NCBI GenBank assembly: GCA_004565275.1
Contig: SDOX01000017.1
Span: 167,898 to 231,897 of the forward strand
Length of the DNA stretch: 64,000 bases
From: Nannochloropsis salina CCMP1776
Taxonomy: Eukaryota; Sar; Eustigmatophyceae; Eustigmatales; Monodopsidaceae
Direction of reading: 5' to 3'
The translations under genes and the position numbers were made by a program. The notes below the pieces were generated by a model that saw only the letters and a program-made list of their open reading frames with translations, was not told where the DNA came from and did no database searches. Below are positions 18,018 to 27,581 of this stretch, in pieces (the first letter of the stretch is position 1; every line of letters begins with the position of its first letter).

Positions 18018-18474
18018 CGTTTCTTTGAGCACTGATGCCTAAGCTTTGCGCCGCAGGGGCCGGAGGCTGCGCGAGCAACAGAAAGAAGGATAAAAGACAA
18101 AAGTCACTCTTTCCCTGTGCCGGGTATGCGATATAGGTATTGAAATATTGAGGTCCACAGTAAGCTTACAAAGGCCTGAGTTTTTAACGCGGGGGGAGGG
18201 CTATGCTCGTGGTAGGAAAGGGGGGGGGGGTTGGGGGGGAAAGGAGAGGAAGCAGGCGAGTCACGACACTAGCATAGGCCGTGACCATAACAATGCCTCC
18301 ATTCACACACATTGCGCCGCTCCCTGTGATATTTCCTAACATCTTCGCGAGTCGTTGCCTGCACTAACATATATGTGTAATATACACATCCCGGTTCCAC
18401 ATTTCTGCGAACTTGAGCCAGTTCGGCCGCAGACAGTCGCATACGTGTCCCACCGAGCCCTCCTGCATACCAAA
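18018..18474. promoter_or_regulatory. Divergent promoter with G-rich tract
   Basis: Lies between two divergent genes. The plus strand holds G-runs at 18,191-18,250 (six, ten and seven consecutive Gs) able in principle to form a quadruplex. No gene is supported. Confidence 0.4.
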
Positions 18475-19773
18475 ATGCTGGTTCGTGCCTTGCTCCGTAC
18501 TGGGAACCGCGGCACTCATTGTGCCCAGCGGGCATATGGCACGGGCCACCCTCTCATCACACGCTGTGTGATTAGGAGACCAGCTTCATCGTCTCTTGCA
18601 ATCCTGGCGGGGCCAGCCGGATGCGCTTATAGGAGCATCTTCAGTATGCTGAGTGGAGCTGACAGAAACCGGGCGCTGGCCAAGAAAGAAGCTGAAGACC
18701 AGACCGCGCTAGCCAAGCCTATTGATTTTGACGTGGCCTCGCGTGTGGAAGGCGCAGAGACGCAAATCGTGGTGGTAGACTTGGAGCCGGGACAGGTACT
18801 GCGGGCGGAGACGGGTAGCCTCCTCTACATGACGGACGGGGTGGAGCTTGAGACCTCCCTGGGGGGCGGCCTGTCCGCAGGCCTAAAGCGGTACATGACA
18901 GGGGAAAACATGTTTATAAGTGACTTCAAGTATCATGGTCCGGAGGGCAGTTCTGGGACTGTGGCGTTGGGGACGGAGTTTCCCTCAAAGATCATCCGTG
19001 TGACACTAGCTGACTACGGCGGTTCGCTCATCTGTCAGAAGGGTGCTTTCTTGTGCGGAACTCATTTGACGGGGATGGAAATGGAGTTTACGCGCTCTTT
19101 CAAAAGCGGCTTCTTTGGGGGGGAAGGCTTCGTGCTACAGCGCCTGACGGGGGGCGGGGACGCTTTCATTAAAGCGGGAGGTGCACTCATCCGGCGCGAG
19201 CTCTCGGAGGGAGAAACACTGCGAGTCACCTCCGGATCGCTCGTTGGCTTCGCGCCGAGCGTCCAGTATGACGTGGAGATGTTGAAAGGCGTCAAGAACG
19301 TCATGTTCGGGGGCGAGGGTCTCTTCGTGACCACGCTCACGGGGCCGGGGAGCGTCTTCCTCCAGTCGATGCCCTTCGACCGCGTCGTCGCCTCCATCGC
19401 CTCCCGCGTACCGCGCGGTGGTTTGGGCCTCGGTGTACCCATCGGCATGGGGGCAGGAGGCGGGGGTGGGGAAGGTGAGGGGGAAGGCGAAGGGGAAGGG
19501 CAGGCGGGGGGAGAGGGAGCAGACGCCTCTTCGGCGGCCGCGGCTGGTGCCGGGCTGGGCGGAACGAGCAGTGGAATGAGCAGTGGGGGTGTCAGTGAGG
19601 GTACAGTGCCAGGAAGCAGTGGTACAGAGGAGGTGTGGGGGGAGGAGAAGGGGGGCGAGCCAGAGGGCGATGAAGGGGGGGAGGCTGGGGGGGAGGATGA
19701 TGAAGCTTTCTCTGAGTCGGGAGTCCGGGACGCGATAGGCGACGTCTTTGACAGCATCTGGGGTGATGACTAG
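18475..19773 (+). CDS. AIM24/TIGR00266-family protein, probably mitochondrial
   Basis: Beta-structured protein of the AIM24 family, whose yeast member affects mitochondrial inner-membrane architecture. The ATG at 18475 (CAAAATG context) opens a 432-aa frame with a basic, Arg-rich presequence (LVRALLRTGNRGTHC to AYRSIFSML) suited to mitochondrial import. The family core follows: VVVDLEPGQVLRAETGSLLYM, GENMFISDF, GTVALGTEFPSKI, SGFFGGEGFVLQRLTG, GSLVGFAPSVQYDVEMLKGVK (motif quoted in part) and GEGLFVTTLTGPG. The last ~100 residues are a Gly/Glu/Ser low-complexity tail. The longer open frame begins at a TTG and is less likely. Molecular function is not established in the family. Confidence 0.85.
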   Translation: MLVRALLRTGNRGTHCAQRAYGTGHPLITRCVIRRPASSSLAILAGPAGCAYRSIFSMLSGADRNRALAKKEAEDQTALAKPIDFDVASRVEGAETQIVVVDLEPGQVLRAETGSLLYMTDGVELETSLGGGLSAGLKRYMTGENMFISDFKYHGPEGSSGTVALGTEFPSKIIRVTLADYGGSLICQKGAFLCGTHLTGMEMEFTRSFKSGFFGGEGFVLQRLTGGGDAFIKAGGALIRRELSEGETLRVTSGSLVGFAPSVQYDVEMLKGVKNVMFGGEGLFVTTLTGPGSVFLQSMPFDRVVASIASRVPRGGLGLGVPIGMGAGGGGGEGEGEGEGEGQAGGEGADASSAAAAGAGLGGTSSGMSSGGVSEGTVPGSSGTEEVWGEEKGGEPEGDEGGEAGGEDDEAFSESGVRDAIGDVFDSIWGDD

Positions 19774-19932: not shown

Positions 19933-22900
19933 CTACCAAAAAGGCAAAGGTCTGCCAAGATTCAATTCCTCAGTGACCAAACTCAGCACCTCGTACCCGA
20001 TGTTTTTCTGCCCAGGCAAGGCGGCTTTATTCGAGGTCACCACCAGTACCACGCCCGTGCTTGGATCACAGAGCGCCAATTGTCCACAGGCACCCGCGTG
20101 CCCGTACGCGCTGCCCCACCGCACGACTTCCATGGGGCTGTTGCCCGCGCCCTCAGGCCCCCCGGCAACCATGGCGGCGGGGGCCTCGAAACCGAAAAGC
20201 TGGACTCCGCAGGCTAGCTTGACGGTGTGTTCGCGCCCCATGATGCGAGTAAGGCCTGGTTCAGAGTCCACAGGGTTGGCCTTCATGTCCTCGAGCCGGG
20301 CCAGACTCAGGATCGTAAAGGGAGGGGAGGCGGGCGACAAGCCAGCGGGTGTGGGGGCGGAGGAGGAGGACGACTTGAAGGTGGGTTTGCCCACCCTGGT
20401 GTTGGCGCTGCTGTTCGTGTAAAGGACTTTGCCGGCTTTCGAGGGGGATGAGGCTAGCGCTCCGGATGCGAAAGGTAATGTTACAGGCGCGCCCGAGGCA
20501 GTAGTCAGGAATTGCTGTTGCGCAACGTTACCTGTGCTTCGCTCGATGCGACACAGGGCCTCCAGGACATCAGCAAGGGCTCTGGCGCTGAAACGGCCGC
20601 TTAGCGAAGGCAGGGAGCCCGATGACCGGCATCTTTTGCCGTTGAGCATGCGCGGATCCAGCAAAAACTCACGTCCGGTCAGCTTTTGTTGCCAATCCTT
20701 GAAAGCTGCGGCCTCGTCGCCCTCGTCGCTACCTCTCACGTCTATCATTCCCTCCATCATCCCCATCAGCCCCTTGTCCGCCCCCGTACTCCCGCACCCT
20801 TCCCCTGACAACTCGGCCACCAACTCCCGCAAATCGTATTCCACAGTGGCCAGGCGTGGGTCGTCCGACGAAGGGAGCTGCTCAGTGCCAAGCACAGGGC
20901 CCAGCACGACACCACCCGGTTCACTTTCGGACTGCGGTTCGAGACCTAGAGGAGTCAGAAGCTTCTCATGCACTAATTTCCGAAGCGATTTCCCCGAGGC
21001 AGCCTCAAGAAGAGGCGCTAAGAGCCACCCGAAGCTGTAGTAGTGCATGGAGACGCGGGCAGAGGGCTTGCCAATCGCACCCACGGGTTTCGCCTCCTTA
21101 ACAGCCTTGATGCCTGTCTGAGGGTCCCATAACGACTGCGGGGTGGCATTCCTGGGGAACGCGTACTCGAGACCGGCACTGTGCGTCAAAATATGTCGCA
21201 GTGTGATGCCGTCCTTGCCGGAGTCCCGGTGCTCGGGACAGACGTCCGTGAGCAAGGTGTCGTAGGATAGGACCCCCTCGTCGACCAAGGCGTGCGCTAG
21301 GATAGCCAGCACTGCTTTGGTCAGACTGAAGCCGCAGAAGAGCGTGGAGGACGTTACGGGCATGGGGTTCAGTCGGCTACATAAGCCCTCGGCAGCGTTG
21401 ACCAGCATGCGTCCATTTTTGTACAACACGACTTGAACCCCTACGCCGTGGCCCTCAGCCAGTAAATCCTGTAATAACGTACGTACTTTGCGGTCCAAAA
21501 ACGATACAGGTGGCGAGGACGAGTCCGAGGGCGAGGGTAGCGGTGGACGTGGCCGCTCGAGGAGAGCTCGTTTGCAACTGGCAGCCATGATGTGCATATA
21601 CTCCACGCGCACGCCCAGTTTAGCGCCCAAGCCCTGCAGCATCTCCGTCACTCGGGCCAGGAAGAGAAGTTCGGGGACCATCGTCTTGAGGGGATTCCTC
21701 TCGCGCTTAGGTTTTTTCTTTTGCTTCTCCACAAAGTCCTCCATGAACTGCTTCGACTGCTCGCGCGCTTCCGCCCCCGGCGACGTGTCACGCATCATGA
21801 ATCGAATGTTGCCGAGGTCCTCCACCACGTTGACCAAGTCGATCGGCATCCCGACCTCCTCCATCCCGTCCAGCATGCCCCCCATGTCGAGCTCCCACAC
21901 AGACAGGACGATCTTCGCGTTCCCGAGGCGGACGTGCTCTGAGAGCTGCTTGGCGAGGCCCCAGTCCAGGACGACCGGCCTGAAATGCCGGCGGCCCTCC
22001 GTATCTGTGGAAGCCTGCACATGAATGTTACCTGCGTGCGGATCCCCTTGGAAGAAACCCTCCACGTAGCAGCCGTAGGCAAAGACCTCGCACAGCGTCC
22101 TCATGAACAGGGCCTTGTCCTCCGCGGCAGTCTCGGGATTGGAGAAGGCTCGGGGGTCCGTCACCTTGACACCCTCACAGTATGTCATGACCAGCACGTC
22201 CGGTGAGGCGTGCAGCACCTGTGGGACCACCGCGTCCAATCCCGACTTCTTTGCGATCCCCTCGTATGCCATCCGCAGGTTGTCGCCCTCAATTTTGAAG
22301 TCCAGCTCCTTGCGCACCTCCTTACTCCACTCGCGCGCCACCATGCTGAAGTCGTAGTCCGGTTCGATCCATCCGATCAAGGTAAGAATCACCACGATGT
22401 TCCGCAAGTCTATGCTTAGGAGCCTTGCCACGTCTGGGTGCTGCACCTTGACCACCACGTCCGTCCCGTCCTTGCGCCTCGCCCTGTGCACCTGAGCGAT
22501 GGAGGCAGATGCCAGGGCCTCCGACTCAAAAGTGTAGAACGCCTCGTCAAGACGAGAACCAAGCGCTTTTTCGATCATGGGCCGTATGGCTGTAATCGGG
22601 GACGGAGGGACGGCGTCCTGAAGAGCTGAGAGCTCGTCCGAGAAGGCATCTGGCACGATGTCGGCGCGCGAGGAAATGTATTGCGCCATCTTGATGTAAC
22701 TCCCCTTGAGTCGGAAGAACGCCAACCTGAGGTAGGCACCGTAGATGTAATTGGCCTCCTCCCACAAGGCCTCCGACTCCGTGGCCAGGCGTGTCCCCAC
22801 CCGGACCTTGGTCAACTCGATCGCCACCACCAGCACAGCCGCGACGCTGAAAGCCGTTGCGCTGCGTCTGTACAGGGTCGACGAGACCAGCAGCACGGAG

Positions 22901-24003
22901 ACTAGTATCGTCACCGACAATGTCAACCAGTAGGATTCGGTGCTGGTAGGATGAATCTCATACAAGTGCTTGAGATAAGCAAGGGGCGCCCAAGGAGCGC
23001 GAGAGCTCCAGCCGAAGGAGGCAGGCAGATCCAGCCAGTCCACCGTCTGTCGCAGGCTCGGCTGCAGCAGTTCCACGACCTGCACATCCCAACCCCGCAG
23101 ACGGATGAAAAGCGCAAGATAGTGGCCAATAAAGGCGCCACAAATGAGTGTGGATGCAGTGGCGCTCCCAATGACCCAGTCAGCGCATTTGAGTAGCGTC
23201 CTTGCTTTCCTGACGCGTCGCGCCCGTTCCAGGGTACCAAGCCGATTCTCCAAGGTCAACATCCGCTCTGTCATGTCTTGGCCGTAGTCTGGACCGTACG
23301 TCCCAGCAGTGGGAGAGGCAGGCACTGCTCCATAGAGCGCACAGTCCATCTTGCCACCGCTTTCCTCGTACTCACGCCGTGCCCGCTGTACCGCTAGATG
23401 ACACAGCATGCAAGCTCTCTTTTGCTTTGTACCGAGTCGATAACGGGTGCAATCCGAGCAGCATAAGGCTCCACAGAAGCGACAATGGTGCCGCCGCGTG
23501 GTGAGGGAAAAACCTGCACCACACTGACTACACTGAGGTCCGTCAGGCTCCCACTGGCTGCGTGGAACAGGAACAAGCATCGGTGCCCTGTCGTCTTCTT
23601 CCGCTTCTGATCCACATTCCTTCGGTTCCAACACGTCTTTGAGCTTGCTAAGCTTCGAAAAGTTGCCTTGTACTCGTATCAATCGCTTCGCTATGGCCGC
23701 CGTGAACTCTGTTTTGCCCTTGAGAGCCTCGAGTAGGGCATCTGCTGATTCGCACGTAATAGTGAAGTCTGCATTTGGCGGAGAGCCCGATGAGATGCAG
23801 TCGTCGGGTAGTTCAGACACGGGATCTACAATGTCTTTGTGTAAGTCAAGCATCCAAGATCGCGGATTGGGGTTGAGAATATCGAAGCGGCCTCGCAGGT
23901 CGACGTCGTACCCGGGGTTCAGTTTTCTCTTTTCCGCTATATTCGTCTGCACCAGTAGGAAAAACCGGTCAATTTCAAGCCCAGCGGCAGGTTTCCGAGC
24001 CAT
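19933..24003 (-). CDS. SCP2-FYVE-TM-ABC1 kinase-beta-lactamase fusion protein
   Basis: One uninterrupted frame of about 1,356 aa from the ATG at 24003 (the frame opens further to ATG 24234, but that extension looks untranslated). Domain order: SCP2-like sterol-carrier domain (~10-125); FYVE zinc finger (~150-208) with WEPD, RRHHCRFCG and paired CxxC motifs; coiled segment; about three membrane helices; ABC1/UbiB atypical kinase with KMAQ (for KxGQ), SASIAQVH, VVVKVQHP, GDPHAGN and DWGLAK; then a class C beta-lactamase/LACTB-type serine hydrolase with SLTK (SxxK), a YYSFG at the YxN site and YGHAG (HxG). ABC1 kinases support quinone and lipid metabolism in mitochondria and plastids. A plant ABC1K clade with a lactamase-like tail is known to me; the SCP2 and FYVE additions suggest lipid and phosphoinositide membranes. 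Function is inferred. Confidence 0.9.
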   Translation of the reverse strand: MARKPAAGLEIDRFFLLVQTNIAEKRKLNPGYDVDLRGRFDILNPNPRSWMLDLHKDIVDPVSELPDDCISSGSPPNADFTITCESADALLEALKGKTEFTAAIAKRLIRVQGNFSKLSKLKDVLEPKECGSEAEEDDRAPMLVPVPRSQWEPDGPQCSQCGAGFSLTTRRHHCRFCGALCCSDCTRYRLGTKQKRACMLCHLAVQRARREYEESGGKMDCALYGAVPASPTAGTYGPDYGQDMTERMLTLENRLGTLERARRVRKARTLLKCADWVIGSATASTLICGAFIGHYLALFIRLRGWDVQVVELLQPSLRQTVDWLDLPASFGWSSRAPWAPLAYLKHLYEIHPTSTESYWLTLSVTILVSVLLVSSTLYRRSATAFSVAAVLVVAIELTKVRVGTRLATESEALWEEANYIYGAYLRLAFFRLKGSYIKMAQYISSRADIVPDAFSDELSALQDAVPPSPITAIRPMIEKALGSRLDEAFYTFESEALASASIAQVHRARRKDGTDVVVKVQHPDVARLLSIDLRNIVVILTLIGWIEPDYDFSMVAREWSKEVRKELDFKIEGDNLRMAYEGIAKKSGLDAVVPQVLHASPDVLVMTYCEGVKVTDPRAFSNPETAAEDKALFMRTLCEVFAYGCYVEGFFQGDPHAGNIHVQASTDTEGRRHFRPVVLDWGLAKQLSEHVRLGNAKIVLSVWELDMGGMLDGMEEVGMPIDLVNVVEDLGNIRFMMRDTSPGAEAREQSKQFMEDFVEKQKKKPKRERNPLKTMVPELLFLARVTEMLQGLGAKLGVRVEYMHIMAASCKRALLERPRPPLPSPSDSSSPPVSFLDRKVRTLLQDLLAEGHGVGVQVVLYKNGRMLVNAAEGLCSRLNPMPVTSSTLFCGFSLTKAVLAILAHALVDEGVLSYDTLLTDVCPEHRDSGKDGITLRHILTHSAGLEYAFPRNATPQSLWDPQTGIKAVKEAKPVGAIGKPSARVSMHYYSFGWLLAPLLEAASGKSLRKLVHEKLLTPLGLEPQSESEPGGVVLGPVLGTEQLPSSDDPRLATVEYDLRELVAELSGEGCGSTGADKGLMGMMEGMIDVRGSDEGDEAAAFKDWQQKLTGREFLLDPRMLNGKRCRSSGSLPSLSGRFSARALADVLEALCRIERSTGNVAQQQFLTTASGAPVTLPFASGALASSPSKAGKVLYTNSSANTRVGKPTFKSSSSSAPTPAGLSPASPPFTILSLARLEDMKANPVDSEPGLTRIMGREHTVKLACGVQLFGFEAPAAMVAGGPEGAGNSPMEVVRWGSAYGHAGACGQLALCDPSTGVVLVVTSNKAALPGQKNIGYEVLSLVTEELNLGRPLPFW

Positions 24004-24587: not shown

Positions 24588-27020
24588 CTAACCTTCCCCG
24601 ACGTTACATTTTTGTCGCGAAAAGGTGCCAAAGTCGTCATTCCAAGCCAGAAGGGTGTCCAAGTCCTTTTCACTCACGGAAGGCCGCAGAGTTGACAGTG
24701 CCTCCAGGAAGTGGCGGAAGTGAATGGGAGGGACGTCGGCGACAGCAAGTGCAGTGATGTCGCCAGCCAAGCCCGCAGTCATGTCGCGGATGGGTCCCAT
24801 GGCCGCCTCTGTGCAGAGCTGATGGACGTCTGAGCCGCTGAAACCACGGGAGCGCGTCACTACCTGCTCGATTTCCTGCGGGGTAAGCTGGTGGTTGTTG
24901 GTGCGCAGGAGAAGGACAATTAGAGCACGTCGAGCTTCCGCCTCTGGCAGCGGAATGTAGAGCCGCTTCACGAAACGCCTTCTCGCCGCCTCATCCAGCT
25001 CTTGCGGTCGATTCGTCGCGCCCACCAGGAGGACTCGCGCCGCCGCCGCGGCGCTGCCACAGCCATCGAGCTGAACCAGGAACTCAGTTTTCATGCGTCT
25101 GCTCGCCTCGTTCTCGTCGGCACTTCGCTGGCACAAAAGTGAGTCGACCTCGTCGATGAAGACAATGGACGGGCTCATGTAGGCCGCCAGCCGGAAGAGT
25201 GTACGCACGAGCTTCTCTCCCTCCCCGATCCACTTTGACGTGAGGGAGGAGGCGGAGATGTTGAAGAAGGTGGCCCCTGACTGATGGGCGATGGCCTTGG
25301 CGATGAGGGTCTTGCCTGTGCCCGGTGGTCTGAGGTGTGTGGATGCGTGCGTTGCAGGTGAGTTAAAGAGAAAAATGAACGAGTCCGCGTGGAATATTGG
25401 GCATGCGGGCAAGGCAGAACCCCTCAGGGGGGCCGCATCCAGGAGACGCACTCCTTTCTGTGTCACGCACCCGAAGAGCAACAGGCCCCGAGGCAAGGCG
25501 CGCAAGCCTGTAAATATGTCAGGTCGAGACATGGGCCAGCAAATGAGCTCCAGGATCGTCTGTTTGGCGAAGGCAAGCCCGGCGATGTCATCGAAAGTGA
25601 CGGGGTCCCCGCGGTCGATGATCTCCTGCTCGATCCTCTCAATAAGCAGCGGGTCACAGCCTTTCAGTTCCTCCGGAAGTTCCTCTTCCGACCCTCTATC
25701 CCCGCTGGGTCCGTGCCTCTGTGCCTGCGGTTGCTGCACAGAACCTCTGAAGGCGTTTTCCACCATGCTACTGATTCCCTTCTTCCCCCCAACGCTCGCC
25801 CCTCCTCGCCCGCTCGTCTCACTGGAGCCCTTGACGGGTGGTACAAACTTTTTCATCACGCGAGACGGAGCTGAAACGGGCGCAGGTGGACCCACCCAGT
25901 TCAGATTTTCTTCGTTTTGCTGCAACATACAAGAGCGCGACGGCGGCTGGATCCAGGACGTTGATGGACCGCTGCGCTCCTGAGCCTGACTCCAATTCGG
26001 CCCACCACACGTATTCCCACTTTGCCTTATGCCAGTCGAGAACATAAATTTGGATTGTTCACCATTCGCTTTCGCCGGCTCTGGCAATGGTCGCTCCTCA
26101 CGAGACGACAACAGCGAGTGTTGCAGCTCCGCAGAATCTTCTCCACGCCCTCCTTCACGTCCGAAACCACTCAAGCCCCCTCCCCTCCCGCTTTCTGCGC
26201 CAGCAAAGGGACGCTTGCGGCTCTTATCTCGCAATTCTCCCGCTGTAGAGAAATGTGAGGTATACGCAGGACGCTGCTTTCGCTGCGCGTCATCGTTCTC
26301 CTGCCTTGAAAAGGGCACTGGCTTCTGCGGCACAAGCGCATCATGGTGAGATGACGTTACCGCCCCGCCATAAGAAACAGGTGAACGAAAATGCTGTATT
26401 GAGACATTGGAGATCACATGAGGTTTCCTCGAAGAGGTTGGGGGCGCAAATGGACTTTGACGCTGGACCTCTGTGAGTGTACTGTCCGATAGATGGTGAT
26501 GCTGAAGAAGGTTCTTCTGCGCCGCTGCGTCTTGTCGCTCCTTTGTTCTGTACTCCTTGATTACCGATGTCCGCCCTTGTTCCATCACTACATTTTGGAG
26601 AGGTGATTCATGGCTGGGAGTCGGACCATCCCACCTTGTCATTAGTGCCAGCACATCCTCCTCGTCTGTCAAAAAAGAGGCGTCACTCAGCAATTCGGAC
26701 GTAAAGGTTACTCTCTCGGCCATTGATGAAGCCTCAGGAAGCGGATACTCTTGTACTTGTTGTTGGACAATGTTCAAGCGTTCTTGCTGCACCAGAACAC
26801 GAAGTGCCTGTTGTTGACATGTTATTTTATTTGTCAAAGGACCAGCGGCGAGGGCTTGCTTTGCCAAAGCTACCTCCAGAAGGCAAAGACAAGATATACC
26901 ACTGACTAATGCGCATGGACTTGAGTGGGCTGTCTCGTGTGTCAGACCTGCAGGTGTCCTCAGCGCTGTGACGCGTGGCTCCAAAGATGGCAAGGAGGAG
27001 GAGAGGGAGGAAGGTACCAT
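24588..27020 (-). CDS. FIGNL1: Fidgetin-like 1 (FIGNL1) AAA ATPase
   Basis: Meiotic-clade AAA ATPase; FIGNL1 acts on RAD51/DMC1 filaments in recombination and relatives sever microtubules. The ATG at 27020 gives 763 aa after removal of a 141-nt intron (25330-25470) that sits inside the P-loop: LLLFG then PPGTGKT. The FIGNL1 hallmarks are DPVTFDDIAGLAFAKQTI, WPMSRPDIFTGLRALP, SGATFFNISASSLTSKWIGE, Walker B IVFIDEVDSLL, ATNRPQELDEAARRR and RLYIPLPEAEARR. The N-terminal ~370 residues are Ser/Pro/Gln-rich and poorly conserved. The intron has no stop and a length divisible by three, so the unspliced message is also open. The frame opens further upstream at TTG; an unseen 5' exon is possible. Confidence 0.9.
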   Translation of the reverse strand: MVPSSLSSSLPSLEPRVTALRTPAGLTHETAHSSPCALVSGISCLCLLEVALAKQALAAGPLTNKITCQQQALRVLVQQERLNIVQQQVQEYPLPEASSMAERVTFTSELLSDASFLTDEEDVLALMTRWDGPTPSHESPLQNVVMEQGRTSVIKEYRTKERQDAAAQKNLLQHHHLSDSTLTEVQRQSPFAPPTSSRKPHVISNVSIQHFRSPVSYGGAVTSSHHDALVPQKPVPFSRQENDDAQRKQRPAYTSHFSTAGELRDKSRKRPFAGAESGRGGGLSGFGREGGRGEDSAELQHSLLSSREERPLPEPAKANGEQSKFMFSTGIRQSGNTCGGPNWSQAQERSGPSTSWIQPPSRSCMLQQNEENLNWVGPPAPVSAPSRVMKKFVPPVKGSSETSGRGGASVGGKKGISSMVENAFRGSVQQPQAQRHGPSGDRGSEEELPEELKGCDPLLIERIEQEIIDRGDPVTFDDIAGLAFAKQTILELICWPMSRPDIFTGLRALPRGLLLFGCVTQKGVRLLDAAPLRGSALPACPIFHADSFIFLFNSPATHASTHLRPPGTGKTLIAKAIAHQSGATFFNISASSLTSKWIGEGEKLVRTLFRLAAYMSPSIVFIDEVDSLLCQRSADENEASRRMKTEFLVQLDGCGSAAAAARVLLVGATNRPQELDEAARRRFVKRLYIPLPEAEARRALIVLLLRTNNHQLTPQEIEQVVTRSRGFSGSDVHQLCTEAAMGPIRDMTAGLAGDITALAVADVPPIHFRHFLEALSTLRPSVSEKDLDTLLAWNDDFGTFSRQKCNVGEG
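25330..25470 (-). other. Stop-free 141-nt intron inside the FIGNL1 P-loop
   Basis: Donor GG|GTGCGTGAC at 25470 and acceptor CACCTCAG|A at 25330 (minus strand). The intron is 47 codons long and open in the gene's frame. Removing it restores the Walker A motif FGPPGTGKT. Confidence 0.85.
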
Positions 27021-27581
27021 GCTGTCGCTAAATTTGGTCCGCGATCTGCGTGAGGCTTTGTTCCCTGCTTTTCGCTCTGGATAAGGAGCTGTAGATAGTT
27101 TAATGAGGGCCAAAAAAGGTAACGTTGAGGTCAAACTCCTTCAAGGTAGAGAACGTGAGAAAGGACCTTGAATGTCATGAATGCCTGTGACAATTGCTGC
27201 GGTCACCTTCAAAGTTTGTAATTCAGCGACGACGCCAAGGAGCATCATGCCGGAGAGTGCCAAGAAGAGGGAAAAAAATGGAGAGACGGAAATGAATGAA
27301 GCGAATCATTAACATTTTCGTGTATTTGACGAATTTTAGTATCGAAATACACACATGGTGCCCAGGGGAGGGGGAGGTGGACGATGGAGCACAGAATCAT
27401 CGTGGAGAGGGTAGGAAGGGAGCCTCGAGGGGAGGGTGCCGGGAGGTTTGACCAAGCAAGTGCAACAATGTGACGGAAGTGGCACTGGAGGTTTGCTACA
27501 AGAAGGTACATGTCGTGGTTTTTCCTAAAAGGAAAAATATGTCCCCCGTTCCCAATTAAACCCTTTTTCGAATAAACCAGC

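What the first reader, a model, noticed from the sequence alone, without database searches (positions are those of the whole stretch)
19933..24003. Five-part fusion: SCP2 + FYVE + membrane helices + ABC1 kinase + serine beta-lactamase
One uninterrupted frame links a sterol-carrier domain, a PI3P-type FYVE finger (WEPD, RRHHCRFCG), membrane helices, an ABC1/UbiB kinase and a lactamase-like hydrolase with SLTK. ABC1K-lactamase pairs are known to me in plants; adding lipid-carrier and phosphoinositide-binding modules would make a self-contained lipid sensing and processing protein. The kinase has KMAQ where KxGQ is the norm, and the hydrolase has YYSFG where YxN is usual, so both activities may be altered. 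The fused domains suggest that lipid capture, membrane choice, phosphotransfer and hydrolysis are coupled.
Basis: partly seen in the sequence, partly recalled or inferred. Interest (0 to 1): 0.78.

Follow-up and report, generated by a model that had tools for sequence, protein, structure and literature searches.

The report
Lipid-carrying endosomal UbiB kinase–lactamase fusion
A small alga encodes one giant protein that joins a lipid-carrier pocket, an endosome-type membrane tag, membrane helices, a UbiB-type ATPase and a beta-lactamase-like domain; the same chain turns up in very distant single-celled eukaryotes, so it may be an old lipid-handling machine that has gone unnoticed.

Summary
In detail: one open frame (minus strand, 19933-24003, 1356 aa) carries SCP2, FYVE, hydrophobic helices, ABC1/UbiB kinase and a serine beta-lactamase-like domain, and two orthologues (75 and 74% identical) keep the whole chain. 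It is not a private fusion: the same order occurs in Capsaspora, in several unnamed eukaryotes and, with a weaker SCP2, in the dinoflagellate Effrenium. In two relatives PX, and in one PH, stands in the FYVE slot behind an SCP2-like domain. Plant entries carry the ABC1-lactamase core alone, noted for Arabidopsis and rice in 2006; my searches found no paper on the headed form. In 41 aligned family members the key kinase residues are kept in 40 or 41, so the UbiB ATPase is the constant part. The hydrolase is not: here its catalytic tyrosine is methionine (Met986), and 12 of 40 members lack the Ser/Lys pair. Best reading: an endomembrane UbiB ATPase with its own lipid carrier (as UbiJ serves the UbiB pathway in bacteria), moving lipids, perhaps prenyl-quinones, in or out of PI3P-marked membranes. 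Place, substrate and activity are untested.

The parts
19933..24003 (-). Whole open frame, 1356 aa plus stop: SCP2-FYVE-hydrophobic helices-ABC1-lactamase
   Evidence: conserved end to end in P0003 and P0004
23614..23994 (-). SCP2 lipid-carrier domain (residues 4-130)
   Evidence: Pfam SCP2 20.8 bits here, 25.3 and 25.2 in orthologues; SCP2 folds on model residues 1-130
23395..23553 (-). FYVE finger (residues 151-203), WEPD and RRHHCRFCG
23104..23160 (-). Hydrophobic helix 1 (residues 282-300)
   Evidence: Kyte-Doolittle mean 1.63; inside predicted helix 239-302
22873..22929 (-). Hydrophobic helix 2 (residues 359-377)
   Evidence: Kyte-Doolittle mean 1.99
22804..22860 (-). Third hydrophobic helix (residues 382-400), just before the ABC1 core; a similar RR...F stretch is seen before ABC1 in the plant protein P0010
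   Evidence: Kyte-Doolittle mean 1.86; sequences
21874..22623 (-). ABC1/UbiB atypical kinase, Pfam core (residues 461-710)
22681..22692 (-). KMAQ (residues 438-441), the KxGQ position
19951..21525 (-). Serine beta-lactamase / family VIII esterase-like domain with low-complexity inserts (residues 827-1351)
21316..21327 (-). SLTK: Ser893 and Lys896
21046..21048 (-). Met986 where most family members and solved esterases have the catalytic Tyr
20092..20100 (-). HxG box (His1302-Gly1304), counterpart of KTG

Best explanation
A single-gene, membrane-anchored UbiB-type ATPase with a built-in lipid carrier. Shown by sequence and model: the domain order, intact kinase-fold residues, an FYVE finger with its signature residues, an SCP2 fold, a hydrolase fold without its usual tyrosine. 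Inferred: FYVE binds PI3P on the cytosolic side of endosomal or vacuolar membranes; two membrane helices keep the protein there and leave ABC1 and the hydrolase domain in the cytosol; the ABC1 ATPase pulls a hydrophobic lipid out of, or into, the bilayer; SCP2 holds it in between, as UbiJ (SCP2) serves the pathway of UbiB in bacteria. The lactamase domain most likely binds or positions the lipid and is weakly active or inactive in this alga, though probably active in relatives that keep Ser, Lys and Tyr. The lipid may be a prenyl-quinone or related isoprenoid; this is the least certain step.
Against: No localisation, binding or activity data for any headed member. SCP2 is weak in the window by Pfam (20.8 against 21.3). 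A profile of heads from outside this lineage scores the genome's tandem SCP2 gene (about 41.5 bits per domain) above the window's own SCP2 (27 bits), so common descent of the SCP2 heads is not shown by sequence. Three hydrophobic segments would put ABC1 on the other side of the membrane if all three cross it. The 1-440 model is of middling quality (mean pLDDT 67.4, pTM 0.35). Fold matches to alkylsulfatase SCP2-like tails are as good as to sterol carriers and better than to UbiJ, so the fold does not name the lipid. PMC1560137 predicts mitochondria for the plant ABC1-S12 proteins.
Confidence: 0.45

Rival explanations
1. One reading: a complete lipid sensing and processing enzyme in which the lactamase domain hydrolyses a lipid handed over by SCP2, with the kinase as a regulatory or phosphotransfer step.
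For: Ser893, Lys896 and the HxG box are present; the fold is closest to family VIII esterases; relatives such as Capsaspora keep Ser, Lys and Tyr.
Against: The catalytic Tyr is Met in the four members of this lineage aligned, and Leu in P0006; Ser or Lys is lost in 12 of 40 rows while kinase residues are kept.
Confidence: 0.2
2. A signalling kinase on endosomes: FYVE recruits it, ABC1 phosphorylates proteins or lipids, and SCP2 is a lipid sensor.
For: FYVE with signature residues; full set of kinase-fold residues.
Against: PMC7263595 (passages) states that trans protein-kinase activity has not been shown for UbiB, Coq8 or COQ8A, and that their ATPase activity is stimulated by Q-intermediate analogues.
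Confidence: 0.13
3. The head is secondary: the ABC1-lactamase core does whatever it does in plants (perhaps in mitochondria), and SCP2-FYVE is a dispensable add-on.
For: Listed plant entries and a red alga have the core alone; PMC1560137 predicts mitochondria for the plant form.
Against: The head is kept in distant lineages; FYVE is 91-93% identical among orthologues, as conserved as ABC1; PX or PH stands in the slot in three relatives. A plant member co-precipitated with the Rho GTPase ROP1 of pollen tubes, a weak hint away from mitochondria only (PMC7582345, passages).
Confidence: 0.12
4. Two or more neighbouring genes read together by chance or by assembly error.
For: No cDNA for this locus was available.
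Against: No stop in 1356 codons; same chain in orthologues on other contigs; entries that are transcripts by their names carry the chain in other species: P0126, P0145, P0148 (SCP2 of the last two is weak).
Confidence: 0.02

Closest known systems
Plant ABC1-S12 protein (At5g24810, LOC_Os06g48770)
   Same: ABC1 kinase followed by serine beta-lactamase domain; noted in 2006 (PMC1560137, passages)
   Different: Listed plant entries show ABC1 and lactamase without SCP2 or FYVE by precomputed domains and no match to the family SCP2 profile at E below 0.01; no hydrophobic segment in the one plant protein tested, P0019
Capsaspora owczarzaki 'ABC1 family protein' (P0015)
   Same: SCP2, FYVE, two hydrophobic helices, ABC1, lactamase in the same order
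   Different: Hydrolase Ser, Lys and Tyr all kept and KxGQ normal; named only as ABC1 family
Bacterial UbiJ and UbiB
   Same: SCP2 lipid binder encoded next to a UbiB ATPase, both needed in one lipid pathway
   Different: Separate proteins, no FYVE, no lactamase; the window is far below the UbiB equivalog cut-off (186.2 against 487.55 bits)
Yeast Cqd1, Cqd2 and Coq8 (UbiB family)
   Same: UbiB kinase fold with roles in CoQ distribution or synthesis (PMC8346625, passages)
   Different: Mitochondrial; no lipid-carrier or FYVE head mentioned in the passages seen
Family VIII carboxylesterases (7y3z, 5gkv, 5gmx)
   Same: Fold, SxxK, HxG
   Different: 5gkv and 5gmx have Tyr where the window has Met986

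Membership tests
ABC1/UbiB atypical kinases (PF03109) | Profile score over curated cut-off | tested here: met
   191.9 bits against 22.9
ABC1/UbiB atypical kinases (PF03109) | KxGQ, Ala-rich loop, VAIK Lys, catalytic Asp and Asn, DxG | tested here: met
   All present, with KMAQ for KxGQ
UbiB equivalog (TIGR01982) | Equivalog cut-off 487.55 bits | tested here: not met
   186.2 bits
ABC1-S12 (ABC1-lactamase) proteins | ABC1 followed by PF00144 in one chain | tested here: met
   same in relatives
Active serine beta-lactamase / family VIII esterase | Ser and Lys of SxxK | tested here: met
   Ser893, Lys896
Active serine beta-lactamase / family VIII esterase | Catalytic Tyr | tested here: not met
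   Met986 aligned to Tyr of 5gmx and 5gkv and of 30 of 40 family rows
FYVE fingers (PF01363) | Profile cut-off; WxxD and RRHHCR signature | tested here: met
   36.4 against 27.8 bits; WEPD, RRHHCRFCG; signature motifs recalled
FYVE fingers (PF01363) | PI3P binding | not testable with these tools
   needs a binding assay
SCP2 domains (PF02036) | Profile cut-off | tested here: inconclusive
   20.8 against 21.3 bits in the ORF, 25.6 in the genome search, 25.3 and 25.2 in orthologues
SCP2 domains (PF02036) | SCP2 fold | tested here: met

The most novel reading that the evidence does not exclude
An ancient eukaryotic endosomal UbiB machine: a PI3P-, PX- or PH-targeted ABC1 ATPase with its own SCP2 carrier that moves prenyl-quinones or similar lipids between the cytosol and endomembranes, that is, a candidate for non-mitochondrial CoQ handling, with the lactamase domain turned from enzyme into lipid-binding part in several lineages including this one.
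Probability: 0.22. Interest if true: 0.85.

Novelty: new variant of a known kind. Interest (0 to 1): 0.6.

Why it matters
How CoQ is mobilised from mitochondria to other membranes is called a longstanding mystery (PMC8346625, start of abstract), and PMC1560137 says little is known of serine beta-lactamase homologues in eukaryotes (passages). A protein that ties a lipid carrier, a membrane-identity reader and a UbiB ATPase into one chain, kept in distant eukaryotes, gives both questions a concrete test object. The repeated loss of hydrolase residues beside a constant kinase suggests which activity matters most.

Tried and rejected
Assembly or gene-merging artefact: rejected (no stops, orthologues, transcript entries). 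Restricted to this alga: rejected (Capsaspora is an opisthokont, Effrenium a dinoflagellate). 'KMAQ means altered kinase': weak. 'YYSFG for YxN': replaced by the exact change Tyr to Met986. 'Single-copy in its genome': I first thought so; a recheck found a second, split ABC1-lactamase gene on contig C73, see full report.

Against my reading: the held-out head profiles did not single out the window. For SCP2 the genome's tandem SCP2 gene scored higher; for FYVE the window tied for second of 9 FYVE-bearing places searched, namely the 8 best of the genome's 16 match rows, fetched as loci, plus the window's own. Whether the SCP2-FYVE head was gained once is therefore open. The tree is by the quick method, 41 rows; head against no head needs 9 changes, but rows marked headless include P0005 and P0151, whose N-termini are probably cut off, so this may be an over-count, and the root is unknown. 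Five rows are long-branched. P0018 was marked FYVE though below the Pfam cut-off (19.9 against 27.8 bits), and its SCP2 was not recovered (E 0.29). P0157 has FYVE and ABC1 but no lactamase and no SCP2 hit; probably a fragment. P0158 (Effrenium) lacks the VAIK Lys as predicted.

Limits: in each protein search only about 7990 candidates were scored; one search found 453 proteins and listed 120. Absence from animals, fungi, oomycetes or diatoms cannot be claimed. Paper searches for the headed form: (FYVE with SCP2, sterol carrier protein, ABC1, ABC1 kinase, lactamase, domain architecture; ABC1 domain with beta-lactamase domain), and for the plant protein; the few hits looked unrelated by title. 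Subscription papers and preprints are not in that library. The host is taken to be a eustigmatophyte-type alga from genome size (26.5 Mb) only; not tested. Species for P0018 (Corallochytrium), P0017 (Spirogloea) and P0139 (Cyanophora) are recalled from gene-name prefixes, not from a call.
Full report
What is there. The minus-strand frame 19933-24003 encodes 1356 residues without a stop. Pfam finds SCP2 (20.8 bits, cut-off 21.3), FYVE (36.4), ABC1 (191.9) and Beta-lactamase (128.9) in that order. Between FYVE and ABC1 lie hydrophobic segments at 282-300, 359-377 and 382-400. The genome has 26.5 Mb in 103 contigs.

Conservation. Against P0003 and P0004 identity is 59-64% in SCP2, 91-93% in FYVE, 68-71% in the helix region, 88-91% in ABC1 and its C-terminal extension, 75-82% in lactamase parts, and 40-56% in two inserts. 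FYVE is as constrained as the kinase.

How far the architecture reaches. Protein searches followed by Pfam scans of 38 proteins (one, P0002, is the window's own protein, so 37 distinct) give FYVE over its cut-off in 17 of 37: P0001, P0003, P0004, P0011, P0012, P0015 (Capsaspora owczarzaki), P0125, P0126, P0135, P0137, P0144, P0145, P0146, P0148, P0152, P0157, P0158 (Effrenium voratum). All of these but P0157 also have the lactamase domain. SCP2 is over its cut-off in 10 of 37: P0003, P0004, P0011, P0012, P0014, P0015, P0125, P0126, P0137, P0152; P0001, P0135, P0146, P0148 and P0158 have it below the cut-off. P0014 has SCP2 and PX, P0128 PX, P0153 PH. P0126 has, in addition, a START domain between the two halves of its lactamase domain. 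I chose these 38 to cover headed and non-plant entries; they are not a random sample. Capsaspora is an opisthokont, Effrenium a dinoflagellate. Without the head: the listed plant entries by precomputed domains, the red alga Rhodosorus (P0141), Cryptosporidium ubiquitum (P0154), the ochrophyte Chrysoparadoxa (P0007) and Eutreptiella (P0013).

SCP2 goes with the head. A profile built from 11 heads was run on all 211 proteins held. At E below 0.01 it found its 11 members, P0002 (the window's own) and 8 more: P0135, P0144, P0145, P0146, P0148, P0158 (FYVE), P0128 (PX) and P0153 (PH); P0158, P0128 and P0153 are weak (E 0.0006 to 0.0012). No protein without FYVE, PX or PH passed. Misses: P0018 (E 0.29) and P0157 (no hit).

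Tree. A quick tree of 41 ABC1-lactamase cores groups the window with P0003, P0004, P0005 (100) and, in a wider starred group of 8, with P0011, P0125, P0012 and P0007. Capsaspora, P0018 and P0126 form a starred group (96); Effrenium and three unnamed rows (P0144, P0145, P0148) another (98); seven plant-type rows, Rhodosorus, P0143 and P0149 a headless group (98). Headed and headless rows alternate (9 changes, perhaps an over-count because of truncated rows). An old head with losses, and repeated gain, both remain possible.

Active sites (41 rows, the window included). Kinase: KxGQ Lys and Gln 41 of 41, Gly 35 (Ala in 6: four of this lineage, P0153, P0156), VAIK Lys 40 (not P0158), Glu 41, catalytic Asp and Asn 41, DxG 41. 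Hydrolase, 40 rows with the region: Ser and Lys both kept in 28; Tyr kept in 30. In this lineage (P0001, P0003, P0004, P0005) Ser and Lys are kept and Tyr is Met; in P0006 it is Leu. HMMER alignments to 5gmx and 5gkv put Met986 on their Tyr; which Tyr is catalytic in this fold is recalled, with Ser, Lys and Tyr named as active-site residues in PMC1560137. So the kinase is the constant part and the hydrolase has decayed or changed several times.

A second copy. In some searches a weak ABC1 match and a weak lactamase match lie 1.6 kb apart on contig C73. Rechecked with a profile of the ABC1-lactamase core, the + strand of C73 at about 17.8-22.2 kb holds pieces of the second half of the kinase (with DPHAGN and LDFG) and of the lactamase domain in order, in separate frames as if split by introns; the piece that should hold SxxK reads YDLGN, and the Tyr place is also changed. 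The first half of the kinase, SCP2 and FYVE were not found in C73:1-26000. So the genome has a divergent paralogue without an intact hydrolase site, and the window's gene is the only headed one seen. This fits the view that hydrolysis is the less guarded function.

Mechanism. UbiB-family ATPases are proposed to extract or deposit CoQ and its precursors (PMC8346625, passages); UbiB, Coq8 and COQ8A have ATPase stimulated by Q-intermediate analogues, and no trans protein-kinase activity has been shown (PMC7263595, passages). UbiJ binds ubiquinone intermediates in its SCP2 domain (PMC6747719, passages), and ubiJ and ubiB overlap by four bases in E. coli K-12. The window protein joins these two functions and adds an FYVE reader. 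I therefore propose an endomembrane UbiB ATPase with its own carrier. Shown: domains, folds, residues, distribution. Inferred: PI3P binding, place, topology, substrate, direction, and the hydrolase being weak here.

Novelty. The ABC1-lactamase pair was described in Arabidopsis and rice in 2006 (PMC1560137, passages). Searches of the held library gave no paper on the headed form. I rate it a new variant of a known kind.

Noticed in passing
G000:C73, about 17.8-22.2 kb (locus L030): Second, apparently intron-split ABC1-lactamase gene in the same genome with SxxK changed (YDLGN); next to it, about 13.5-18.2 kb, a stretch with long open frames in several frames and both strands, which may be a repeat.
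   Followed up: partly
18355-19773 (+): AIM24-family (mitochondrial biogenesis) gene, 208.4 bits, tail to tail with the fusion gene, 159 bases between the two frames.
   Followed up: no
24588-27134 (-): AAA ATPase with a Vps4-type C-terminal domain (31.8 bits) upstream on the same strand; such ATPases include endosomal Vps4 but also others (recalled), so the nearness may be chance.
   Followed up: no
P0126 (1731 aa), residues 1316-1481: A START lipid-binding domain between the two halves of the lactamase domain, a second lipid-binding module in the same chain.
   Followed up: partly
P0014, P0128, P0153: PX or PH domain in the slot of FYVE, behind an SCP2-like domain: exchange of phosphoinositide-type modules within one family.
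   Followed up: partly
P0154 (Cryptosporidium ubiquitum, 981 aa): Headless ABC1-lactamase with Ser and Lys of the hydrolase both changed and kinase residues kept.
   Followed up: no
P0008, P0009: Proteins joining ABC1 kinase with cytochrome P450, one named for Candidatus Poriferisodalis, by precomputed domains.
   Followed up: no
P0205 (Thalassiosira profunda, 750 aa): ABC1 kinase in one chain with PF00459 (inositol-monophosphatase type, name recalled), by precomputed domains.
   Followed up: no
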